Below, piece by piece: positions 60,726-64,000 of a DNA stretch of 64,000 bases (position 1 is the stretch's first letter; every line of letters starts with the position of its first letter). The stretch lies in NCBI GenBank assembly GCA_000468055.1, contig KI260561.1:211456-275455 (forward strand). Direction: 5' to 3'. The translations under genes and the position numbers were made by a program. Source of the DNA: Treponema lecithinolyticum ATCC 700332. Lineage in GTDB: Bacteria > Spirochaetota > Spirochaetia > Treponematales > Treponemataceae. A model generated the notes under the pieces. The model saw only the letters and a list, made by a program, of their open reading frames with translations, did no database searches and was not told the origin of the DNA.

Positions 60726-63541
60726 TGGAATTCACCCCAGTTGGCGCCGTATTCTACGCTGACGCGAAGCGGGACGGAAAGTTCAACCGCTTTTTCCATT
60801 TCGGTTTTTAAAAGAGAAGCAGTGTCTTTTGCTTGTTCTTCGCTGCATTCGGCTATCAATTCGTCGTGCACTTGCAGCAGTAAGCGTGCGCCGGCTATGT
60901 CTTTTTTCAGTGCGCGGTCAACTGCAATCATCGCTTTTTTTACGATGTCTGCCGCAGAACCTTGGATGGGTGTGTTTACCGCTATGCGTTCGGCTGCCGC
61001 TTTTTCTTTTTTGTTTGCGCTGTTTATGGATGTAATAATGCGCCGTCTTCCCATAATGGTTTGTACATATCCGTTTTGTTCGGCATCCGCTATCGTTTTA
61101 TAAATAAATTCTTTTACGCCCGAATACGTTGCAAAATATGAATCTATAAACTGTTTTGCCGTCCCCATGGGAATACCCAATTCATTGGACAATCGGAAAG
61201 CGCTCATGCCGTACATAACGCCGAAATTGATGGTTTTTGCCGTTCTGCGCTGCTCTGCGGTGATTTGTTCGGGCGGCACGCCGAATATAAGTGCTGCCGT
61301 TGAGCGGTGTACGTCGGTTCCTTCGTTAAATGCGGCGCACAGGTTTTTATCTTGCGATAAATGTGCCAAAATAACCAATTCTATTTGCGCATAATCGGCG
61401 GAAACCAAAACGCGTCCTTTGGGAGCGCTAAAGGCGGCTCGTATGCGTCTTCCGGCTTCTTCGCGCACGGGGATGTTTTGCAAATTGGGATCGCGGCTGG
61501 AAAGTCTTCCGGTTGCCGTTCCCGTTTGAATAAAACTGGTGTGTATGCGCCCGTTTTTGTCAGCCAAAGCGGGCAACGCGTCCACATAGGTGGATTTTAG
61601 TTTGGCAAGCGCACGGTATTCGAGTATTTGTTTGGGAACGCTGTGCCACAGTGCTAATTCTTCAAGTACTCCCGTATCGGTAGAAAAACCTGTTTTTGTT
61701 TTTTTTGAAGGCGTTAATTTAAGTTCTTCAAACAATACCTGCTGCAATTGTTTAGTGCTTGCAATGTTAAACTCGTGTCCTACCGTATCGTAAATAGTTT
61801 GTTCGGCAGTTTTGATTTGTGCCGTCAATTCCGCCGAATATTCGGTAAGTTTTTGTTTTTCAATACCGATACCTGCGATTTCCATTTGTGCCAGTACGGG
61901 CAGTACGGGGGTTTCCAGTTCGTAAAACAAAGCGCTTAAGCCTGTGCTTTCCAATTGCTTTTTAAGCACGTGCCACAACTGCAGCGTAAAATCGGCGTCT
62001 TCAGCGGCATACGGTACGGCTTGTTCCGGCGGAACGTCCATAAAAGTTGCACCTTTGGGAACGATATCCGCAAATTCTATGCCTTTTAAACCCAGTTTGC
62101 TTTCGGCAAGGGAGCCCAGTTTAAAAGAGTCGCGCTCCGGCTGTAAAAGCCATGCGGCAATCATCGTATCGTACACAGTGCATTCGGGGAATTTTCCTGA
62201 ACCCAAACCGTTTGCCAACAGCACTTCCAAGTCGTATTTGCCATTGTGCATTATCAAGTGCATGTCTTTATTGTAAAAAATGCGTTCAAGTTGATGTAAC
62301 GCGTCTTTTTTTGCTATCAGGTTTCCGGCAAGCAGCATATCGGTTGTTTCAATCGGAACATAGTATGCCGTTCCCGCTTGCGTGCACAAAGAAAACCCGG
62401 CAAGGCGCGCTTGGTGCGCATTAAGGCTATCCGTTTCGCAGTCGAATGCAGCTGTTTTAAGCTCGAGTACGGTGTCTATAAGGGCTGTCAGTTGCGTTAA
62501 ATCGTATACCGGGCGGTAATCTCCCGTGTTTTGCCTAACTTCGTCGGCGGTTTTTTCTTCCGGAATATCCGTATGCGGCGTTTTTGCAGCATGAATTGCA
62601 GCAGATGGTGTAGCGGAACTGTCCGATGGCTTTGCCGATGAAACCTCTTTTTTTTGCCCCTGTGCGGATTCTGCGGCTTGTGCGTATTGTTTTGCCACGG
62701 CAAAGACGCCGCAGTTTTGTAAAAGATGCGAAGCTGCAGCGTAATCGATATGAGCGAGCGAAAGATCTTCAATCGTTGTGCCGAGCGGAACATCCGTTTT
62801 AAGCCGGATAAGCGTTCGCGAAAATTCTCCGCTTGTTTTACCTTCACGTATTTTGTTGCCGAGCGCTCCGGTAATTTCTCCTGCGTGTTCGTAAATACCT
62901 TCAAAACTTCCGTATTGTGCCAGCAGTTTTTGTGCGGTTTTTTGTCCTATACCCGGAACTCCGGTTATATTGTCCGCCGTATCGCCGGTTAAAGACAGCA
63001 TATCCAACATAAGAGAGGGGGGTACTCCCCACTCTTGTTCAACTTGTTCGGATCCGATAAGCTCCCAGCCGCCGGTTTTTCCGTTTTTCATCATCATGAT
63101 TTTATCGTCGATAAGCTGCATAAGGTCTTTGTCACCGGATAAAATGCGGCACTGTTTGTTTTGTTCGCGGCACATACGGGCGACCGTCGCGATAATGTCA
63201 TCGGCTTCAAAACCGTCTTGGCGCAGCACGGGTATACCCAACGTTTGCAAAATGTTTTCTATAACAGGTACTTGTGCGTGCAAATCTTCGGGTGTTTTAT
63301 CGCGGTTTGCTTTGTATTGGTCGTACATTTGATGACGGAACGTAGGCGTACGCGAATCAAAGGCTGCCGCCGCAAAAGAAGGGCGTTGACTTTGCAAAAG
63401 GTTTAACAAATTGCGGAAAAAGCCGAATACGGCTGAAACGTTTTCGTTTTTTTCATTTGTCAGCGGGTGGTTTATAAAAGCGTAATACGAACGGTAAATA
63501 AGCGCGTAGGAATCCAAAATATATACCGTGTTGTCGGTCAT
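60722..63541 (-). CDS. polA: DNA polymerase I
   Basis: This 939-residue enzyme fills gaps and removes primers. The 5'-nuclease domain is at about 1-290 (DSYALIYRSYYAF, DGFEADDIIATVA, SGDKDLMQL), the 3'-5' exonuclease at about 345-530 and the polymerase at about 560-939 (SADYAQIELVILAHLSQD motif A, VHDELIAE motif C). Proofreading residues are retained: FDCETDSL, HNGKYDLEVLL and YAAEDADFT. A Ser/Ala-rich linker joins the first two domains. GGAG precedes the ATG. coaE overlaps its stop. Confidence 0.97.
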   Translation of the reverse strand: MTDNTVYILDSYALIYRSYYAFINHPLTNEKNENVSAVFGFFRNLLNLLQSQRPSFAAAAFDSRTPTFRHQMYDQYKANRDKTPEDLHAQVPVIENILQTLGIPVLRQDGFEADDIIATVARMCREQNKQCRILSGDKDLMQLIDDKIMMMKNGKTGGWELIGSEQVEQEWGVPPSLMLDMLSLTGDTADNITGVPGIGQKTAQKLLAQYGSFEGIYEHAGEITGALGNKIREGKTSGEFSRTLIRLKTDVPLGTTIEDLSLAHIDYAAASHLLQNCGVFAVAKQYAQAAESAQGQKKEVSSAKPSDSSATPSAAIHAAKTPHTDIPEEKTADEVRQNTGDYRPVYDLTQLTALIDTVLELKTAAFDCETDSLNAHQARLAGFSLCTQAGTAYYVPIETTDMLLAGNLIAKKDALHQLERIFYNKDMHLIMHNGKYDLEVLLANGLGSGKFPECTVYDTMIAAWLLQPERDSFKLGSLAESKLGLKGIEFADIVPKGATFMDVPPEQAVPYAAEDADFTLQLWHVLKKQLESTGLSALFYELETPVLPVLAQMEIAGIGIEKQKLTEYSAELTAQIKTAEQTIYDTVGHEFNIASTKQLQQVLFEELKLTPSKKTKTGFSTDTGVLEELALWHSVPKQILEYRALAKLKSTYVDALPALADKNGRIHTSFIQTGTATGRLSSRDPNLQNIPVREEAGRRIRAAFSAPKGRVLVSADYAQIELVILAHLSQDKNLCAAFNEGTDVHRSTAALIFGVPPEQITAEQRRTAKTINFGVMYGMSAFRLSNELGIPMGTAKQFIDSYFATYSGVKEFIYKTIADAEQNGYVQTIMGRRRIITSINSANKKEKAAAERIAVNTPIQGSAADIVKKAMIAVDRALKKDIAGARLLLQVHDELIAECSEEQAKDTASLLKTEMEKAVELSVPLRVSVEYGANWGEFH

Positions 63542-63638
63542 TGCATTCTCCTGCTATAAAGTAACACGGATTGGAAGTAAAAACAAGGAGTTTGCAGGTA
63601 CGCATTGTGCGCTTTCGTTTTTTTATCAAAAAAAAAGG

Positions 63639-63667
63639 TTGAAACCTGCCGGAAAGCAGGTTATAAT
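63639..63667 (+). promoter_or_regulatory. promoter with embedded palindrome, phase-variable gene
   Basis: TTGAAA (63639-63644), 17 bases and a perfect TATAAT (63662-63667). The spacer carries a perfect inverted repeat AACCTGC-CGGAAA-GCAGGTT (63643-63662), reaching into both hexamers. A further GCAGGT lies at 63594-63599. The ATG at 63675 begins eight bases after the -10, so the transcript would be leaderless. The palindrome could be a repressor site. Confidence 0.8.
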
Positions 63668-63674
63668 AATACCC

Positions 63675-64000
63675 ATGGAACAATACCGTAGCGCAAACAG
63701 TATTCCGCTCCACGACCTTGCCTCCTTTGCGCATCAACATGTAACACAAATTACACAAAAGTCTGCCCGGATGCTTGACAAAGCGTTCGAACGGTGCATA
63801 ATCGTTCGTTCGTTCGTTCGTTCGTTCGTTCGTTCGTTCGCGTAACTTATGCACAAAACTCAAAATCCGTAAACAACCAACAAATAGGGGCGAATGTGGA
63901 AACCTGTCCCGCTTTACGTGAAAGAACAAACAACGGCATCCATGCCGGTATGAGGATTGCATATCCTGAGTGCAATTCACAACTCGAGTTTGCTCCGCAA
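63675..64000 (+). CDS. candidate phase-variable gene, out of frame here, cut by window end
   Basis: The gene begins MEQYRSANSIPLHDLASF at an ATG just behind a strong promoter. From the ATG the frame runs through a CGTT repeat (coding VRSF units) and stops at TAA 63843-63845, giving only 56 residues. Another frame is open from 63839 to the end of the window (RVTYAQNSKSV..., then CPALRERTNNGIHAGMRIAY...), 54 codons without a stop. Adding one CGTT unit or removing two would join the two parts. Mononucleotide or tetranucleotide tracts in this position are classic phase-variation switches. I do not recognise the protein family. Confidence 0.65.
63803..63840 (+). repeat. CGTT tetranucleotide repeat, nine copies plus CG
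   Basis: Nine perfect tandem CGTT units (63803-63838) are followed by CG; no interruption is seen. Units of four change the reading frame when gained or lost by slippage. It is the only such tract I find in the window and sits inside the first 60 codons of an open frame behind a promoter. Confidence 0.97.

What the first reader, a model, noticed from the sequence alone, without database searches (positions are those of the whole stretch)
63639..64000. Phase-variable gene switched by a CGTT repeat
A strong promoter and ATG lead into nine perfect CGTT units. The ATG frame dies three codons after the repeat, but another frame is open from the repeat to the window edge (54 codons). One extra unit or two fewer would fuse them, so this copy appears OFF. 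Tetranucleotide tracts are a known switch for surface modifiers and restriction-methylation genes in other bacteria. The encoded family is not recognised, so this could be a new switchable system.
Basis: partly seen in the sequence, partly recalled or inferred. Interest (0 to 1): 0.8.

Follow-up and report, generated by a model that had tools for sequence, protein, structure and literature searches.

The report
Repeat-switched leader before treponeme lipoproteins
A short DNA repeat of changing length sits in a small translated leader in front of surface-lipoprotein genes of treponemes (spirochaete bacteria); it probably switches them on and off by deciding whether a ribosome can run through a transcription stop signal, as already shown for pili in one streptococcus.

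Summary
A 39-base CGTT tract (63802-63840) follows a promoter and an ATG. At its present length the ATG frame stops five bases after the tract; a second frame is open to the window edge, which is an assembly gap. That frame is a leader ORF, not a gene of a new family; beyond the gap come two lipoprotein genes. Such leaders occur at 14 loci in 8 of 274 Treponemataceae genomes, three in this one; at 13 of 14 the next gene seen is a lipoprotein. At 11 loci (no gap, terminator-like hairpin) at least one frame runs 34-197 nt past the hairpin, while the frames that do not stop at least 35 nt before it. Leader residues drift, but the frame is kept. Near-identical leaders differ in tract length; two loci use an 8-base repeat. 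Best reading: a phase-variable translation attenuator, the mechanism shown for pil1 of Streptococcus gallolyticus (PMC3894217), here in spirochaetes and on surface lipoproteins. At the window's own locus the gap hides the key stretch, so its mechanism is inferred from relatives. Switching itself was not observed. A second consensus promoter abutting the tract is unexplained.

The parts
63639..63667 (+). Promoter P1: TTGAAA-17-TATAAT, 7 bases before the leader ATG (leaderless or nearly so); the spacer holds a short dyad CCTGC..GCAGG (seen by eye)
   Evidence: TATAAT aligned at 9 of 12 copies; -35 poor at three of these, none of 9/12 or better in the two G133 copies
63675..63845 (+). Leader ORF in its present (closed) state, 56 codons, ends 5 bases after the tract
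   Evidence: an ATG in frame with the LDK..II block at 14 of 14 loci
63775..63802 (+). Promoter-like P2: TTGACA-16-CATAAT inside the leader ORF, abutting the tract; role unexplained
   Evidence: TTGACAAA invariant in 12 of 12 aligned copies
63802..63840 (+). CGTT tract, nine full units plus part, encodes (RSFV)n in every frame
63839..64000 (+). Alternative exit frame, open for 54 codons to the window edge and the gap ('YAQN' frame; its counterpart is the long frame at relatives)
63974..64000 (+). 27-base repeat that also follows the 100-N gap and flanks the gap at the C19 copy; probable cause of the broken assembly (inference)

Best explanation
A phase-variable translation attenuator. Transcription starts at P1 and a ribosome starts the leader ORF. 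Slipped-strand changes in the repeat set the exit frame. In one frame (two at one locus) the leader stays open through an intrinsic terminator in front of a surface-lipoprotein gene, so the ribosome prevents the hairpin and transcription goes on (ON). In the other frames the ribosome stops well before the hairpin, which then ends transcription (OFF). Seen in the sequence: tract, frames, hairpins, lipoprotein genes, length differences between copies. Inferred: slippage in cells, termination and antitermination, and action at the window's own copy, where a gap hides the region.
For: Three copies in this genome, at the only CGTT tracts of 3.5 units or more that it shows; 14 loci in 8 of 274 Treponemataceae genomes. 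The next gene seen is a lipoprotein (by lipobox pattern) at 13 of 14, two of them across a gap; the exception, g521, has an HU-DNA_bdg/DUF4469 gene, then a lipoprotein. Terminator-like hairpin between tract and gene at 11 of 14; at 10 of these the best one beats at least 97 of 100 shuffles. All 11 have a frame open through the hairpin: shuffle expectation 4.3; product of per-locus chances 1.2e-7, or 3e-6 for 9 less redundant loci; antisense strand 5 of 11. Open frames stop 34-197 nt past it, the others 35-408 nt before it. The hairpin lies 30-76 nt before the gene at 6 of 11, with no promoter-like site of 9/12 in between. Six equal-length leaders show changes at all codon positions but no indel from ATG to -10. 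Near-identical leaders differ in tract length: 9.75 v 6.75 and 16.25 v 14.75 units. G133 keeps the design with TTCGTCAG repeats, 4 and 17 units, one open and one closed. The mechanism was tested by mutants in S. gallolyticus pil1.
Against: No reads, no strain series of one species, no transcript data: switching is not observed. A Fisher combination of the per-locus chances is not significant (p 0.079 for 11 loci, 0.11 for 9). At three loci the chance of an open frame is above 0.75. Hairpins were chosen after looking. At the window's locus and C19 the region is cut by a 100-N gap and no terminator stands out; at G088_2362 the best hairpin is matched by 40 of 100 shuffles and two frames are open. 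G088_714 has only weak hairpins: the one used for frames (-9.0) is weaker than the best (-10.1), itself matched by 11 of 100 shuffles; the open frame passes both. Promoter-like sites after the hairpin exist at g521 (10/12) and T. parvum (9/12). P2 has no role in this model.
Confidence: 0.7

Rival explanations
1. Promoter or 5'-UTR type: P2 is the working promoter, its start lies in the tract, and tract length tunes transcript level or stability; the ATG frame is incidental.
For: TTGACA-16-(T/C)ATAAT abuts the tract with constant spacing; TTGACAAA is invariant in 12 of 12 aligned copies while neighbours diverge.
Against: Tract length does not change P2 spacing; the -10 is CATCAT in two copies; it does not explain the kept ATG frame in leaders of different length nor the open frame through the hairpin at 11 of 11.
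Confidence: 0.12
2. Polarity or coupling: leader translation is needed, but acts by Rho-dependent polarity or by translational coupling at the lipoprotein start codon, not through the intrinsic terminator.
For: An open leader frame overlaps the lipoprotein start by 14 nt at g2529, G088_714, T. socranskii and G133_859.
Against: Stop-to-start distances of open frames at the other seven loci range from -235 to +131, the lipoprotein genes have GGAG-type ribosome sites of their own, and strong hairpins with T runs are present.
Confidence: 0.12
3. The leader ORF is an independent small gene with its own terminator, and the lipoprotein genes are transcribed from elsewhere.
For: An ATG with promoter, often a ribosome site, and a terminator after it; promoter-like sites after the hairpin at g521 and T. 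parvum.
Against: No sign of amino-acid selection; no promoter-like site of 9/12 after the hairpin at 9 of 11 loci, six of which leave only 30-76 nt.
Confidence: 0.04
4. Decaying repeat: a copied element without present function.
For: Leader residues drift freely; only 8 of 274 genomes have it.
Against: Frame, -35 block, early stops and hairpins are kept while the rest diverges.
Confidence: 0.02

Closest known systems
Streptococcus gallolyticus pil1 and pil3 (GCAGA repeats in a leader-peptide gene; PMC3894217, abstract and passages seen)
   Same: Short repeat inside a translated leader; the frame decides whether the leader ends before or runs to or through a premature intrinsic terminator; surface structure downstream; two loci in one genome.
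   Different: Tetra- or octanucleotide instead of pentanucleotide; spirochaetes; lipoproteins (BspA-type LRR, FGE-sulfatase domain and others) instead of pili; open frames run well past the hairpin, at some loci into the gene; a second promoter-like site abuts the tract; related leaders at many loci and species. Sequence relation to pil1 was not searched.
Tetranucleotide contingency genes such as Haemophilus lic/mod (recalled)
   Same: Tetranucleotide tract read in a translated frame.
   Different: There the tract lies in the gene itself; here in a leader upstream of the gene.
Treponema pallidum phase-variable loci with poly-G tracts (recalled; review PMC11868660 names T. pallidum for SSR repertoires, passage seen)
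   Same: Repeat-based phase variation in the genus Treponema.
   Different: Homopolymer tracts, no leader ORF or attenuator (recalled).

Membership tests
SSR-switched leader-peptide attenuator (pil1 type) | Short tandem repeat, unit not a multiple of 3, inside an ORF that starts upstream | tested here: met
   in-frame ATG and 4- or 8-base unit at 14 of 14 treponeme loci
SSR-switched leader-peptide attenuator (pil1 type) | Intrinsic terminator between leader and regulated gene | tested here: met
   11 of 14 loci, one of them weak; not seen at the window's own locus (gap), C19 (gap), G088_2362
SSR-switched leader-peptide attenuator (pil1 type) | One frame ends before, another runs through the terminator | tested here: met
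   11 of 11 loci with a hairpin
SSR-switched leader-peptide attenuator (pil1 type) | Repeat number varies within a population | not testable with these tools
   no reads; only differences between loci and species
SSR-switched leader-peptide attenuator (pil1 type) | Downstream transcription depends on leader translation | not testable with these tools
   needs reporter or RNA data
SSR-switched leader-peptide attenuator (pil1 type), window's own copy | Terminator and long frame up to the gene | tested here: inconclusive
   100-N gap at the window edge; no hairpin listed
Phase-variable restriction-methylation or surface-modifier gene (reader) | Tract in the 5' part of a conserved long gene | tested here: not met
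   exit frame ends beyond the gap without a conserved protein; next genes are lipoproteins

The most novel reading that the evidence does not exclude
A portable switch cassette (promoter, leader ORF, embedded second promoter, repeat, early stops in other frames, terminator) has been copied in front of several surface lipoproteins in treponemes and shared with a Synergistales-labelled genome, giving each cell a random combination of surface proteins; the embedded promoter, firing at the edge of the tract, may make the repeat unstable or set the OFF level.
Probability: 0.35. Interest if true: 0.75.

Novelty: new variant of a known kind. Interest (0 to 1): 0.6.

Why it matters
Repeat-switched attenuation was demonstrated for pil1, and indicated for pil3, of one streptococcus. 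The same logic with other repeats and other genes in spirochaetes would mean that it is more widespread and may have arisen more than once; it is easy to overlook because the repeat lies in an apparently intergenic leader. It also predicts which surface lipoproteins of these treponemes vary, which tract lengths in existing metagenome reads could test.

Tried and rejected
Rejected: a new protein family encoded by the open frame (pair counts without amino-acid selection; no long conserved frame). Rejected: restriction-methylation gene at this tract. Considered: antisense ORF over the tract (63453-63980 minus), no support. Viral contigs: no match to one pattern. Rfam: none at gathering score in L066, L113, L009. 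Statistics: the Fisher combination of per-locus chances gave p 0.079 (11 loci) and 0.11 (9 loci); I then used the chance that every locus is open, which states the hypothesis better, but it was chosen after seeing the first. Literature: eight searches; no listed paper appeared, from title and start of abstract, to describe this in treponemes. Searches listed 20 of 42 and 12 of 96 papers. Opened: PMC3894217 (outline, abstract, 12 passages) and PMC11868660 (two passages, one of them references).

Full report
OBSERVATION. The tract, promoter, ATG and two frames are as described. The window lies at G000:C11:211456-275455 of an unnamed 2.34 Mb genome in 21 contigs. Directly after base 64000 come 100 N, flanked on both sides by the same 27-base repeat; the C19 copy has the same kind of gap. 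After the gap follow a 162-aa lipoprotein-like ORF without a Pfam match and a 749-aa lipoprotein with an FGE-sulfatase domain. Lipoprotein here means a lipobox-like pattern near the start; no signal-peptide program was run.

FAMILY OF LEADERS. CGTT tracts of 3.5 units or more occur at three places in the genome, C11, C17 and C19, all within related leaders. Relatives: 2 of 59 genomes in the first pattern search, own genome included; 9 of 145 by leader-protein search, own included, of which G023 is a weak hit without tract (24% identity) and G133 has another repeat; 7 of 274 by promoter-plus-tract pattern; 8 of 274 by a pattern without a long tract. Together 14 loci: C11, C17, C19; two in G001; three in G088; one each in G067, G138, G109, G111; two in G133. 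T. parvum and T. socranskii are oral (recalled). A pattern scan of the GTDB r220 genome contigs found six stretches: in these three species and three in a MAG labelled Synergistales PG1894_167; records near the window's genome may be left out there.

ANATOMY. Each of the 14 leaders has an ATG in frame with a block that reads LDK, then II, then the tract. ATG-to-LDK lengths are 9 to 33 codons. In equal-length pairs, changes are spread over codon positions (for example 9/8/14 for C11 v C19; synonymous 10, non-synonymous 21), so there is no sign of amino-acid selection, but no indel occurs between ATG and -10 in the six leaders of the 33-codon type. The CGTT tract encodes RSFV in all three frames. 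Tracts range from 6.75 to 23.75 CGTT units; G133 has TTCGTCAG instead, 4 and 17 units. At 7 of 14 loci the two other frames both stop within 10 nt of the tract, by stops such as those in GTAGCGTAA; at 13 of 14 at least one frame stops within 12 nt. Exceptions: C11 (81 nt), C19 (312, with N), G088_1928 (42), G133_2265 (17), Q4130 (45 and 58, degenerate repeats), g2529 and G088_2362 (two frames long).

TERMINATOR AND GENE. The next gene seen is a lipoprotein at 13 of 14 loci; at C11 and C19 a gap lies between. Domains: BspA-type LRR_5 (G088_714, G088_1928, G067, G133_2265, and g2529 if its two contig ends belong together), LRR_4 (C17, T. parvum), FGE-sulfatase (C19, G088_2362, Q4130; at C11 in the second gene), none recognised (C11 first gene, G133_859), T. 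socranskii cut by its contig end. A terminator-like hairpin lies between tract and gene at 11 loci. The best hairpin of the stretch is matched by 0 of 100 shuffles at 5 of 11, by 1-3 at 5, by 11 at G088_714. C19 and G088_2362 have none better than shuffles (48 and 40 of 100); C11 showed none and was not in the shuffle test. For the two G133 loci the hairpin ends were set by a motif, not by folding.

FRAMES AND TERMINATOR. At 11 of 11 such loci at least one frame is open through the hairpin; at 10 exactly one. Present states: 5 open, 6 closed. Shuffles predict 4.3 open loci; the antisense strand has 5 of 11 (one-sided Fisher p 0.006). A Fisher combination of the same per-locus chances was not significant (0.079), because at short distances an open frame is expected. 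The strongest single loci are g2529 (0.03), g521 (0.048) and Q4130 (0.063). In S. gallolyticus, isolates whose leader stops at least 28 nt before the terminator show the heterogeneous, mostly low profile, and those that end just before it or run through it have many high cells; here closed frames stop 35-408 nt before and open ones 34-197 nt past.

MECHANISM. These features match the attenuators of S. gallolyticus (abstract and passages of PMC3894217): repeat in a leader gene, frame-dependent leader length, premature terminator, ribosome-dependent antitermination. I therefore read the treponeme leaders as the same kind of switch. 'Works like pil1' is well supported by anatomy; descent from it is not claimed. 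For the window's own locus the reading is by analogy with its copies, since the gap hides the key stretch.

P2. TTGACA-16-(T/C)ATAAT lies inside the leaders with constant spacing; TTGACAAA is invariant in the 12 aligned copies. The pattern searches demanded TTGACA, but the protein search did not and found the same 12 CGTT loci. The -10 is CATCAT in two copies. Its role is not explained by the attenuator model. P1 is weaker as a common feature: TATAAT at 9 of 12 aligned copies, a poor -35 at three of them, and nothing of 9/12 at G133.

SYNERGISTALES. Two copies lead into a UDP-galactopyranose mutase fragment (one of the two searched), one to an ORF without family match. They have the same promoter-tract block and an in-frame ATG. 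Whether the contigs are truly synergistal was not tested beyond G+C (0.54-0.56 v 0.47-0.53 in seven treponeme stretches).

Noticed in passing
L009 5871, L010 minus (C19 gene), L066 5726 and 6689, L069 2038, L109 6343, L113 6174, L114 6322, L108 8222, L068 minus: A purine/pyrimidine hairpin stands just before several lipoprotein and HU-DNA_bdg/DUF4469 genes, the window locus's first lipoprotein gene included. In 11 aligned copies 10 of 14 predicted pairs have compensatory changes; no Rfam match in three sources. By eye a second, mirror-like purine arm often precedes it, but the automated mirror score was 8 or more of 11 at only 6 of 29 hits. Function unknown.
   Followed up: partly
window 63645-63661 and P1 of other copies: The spacer of P1 holds a dyad (CCTGC..GCAGG here, CTGT..ACAG and CCGC..GCGG elsewhere) that changes on both sides, like an operator; seen by eye.
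   Followed up: no
L012 3760-4465: The P1/5' region of the second leader type also precedes a small ORF pair that looks like a toxin-antitoxin module (by eye, no search), followed by another lipoprotein gene.
   Followed up: no
window 63974-64000; L009 5557-5583; L010 C19 copy: A 27-base repeat flanks both 100-N gaps; further similar stretches in the genome.
   Followed up: partly
L072 160-776, L074 4284-4880: In a Synergistales-labelled MAG the leader and tract run, in frame in one of two copies at present length, into a truncated UDP-galactopyranose mutase.
   Followed up: partly
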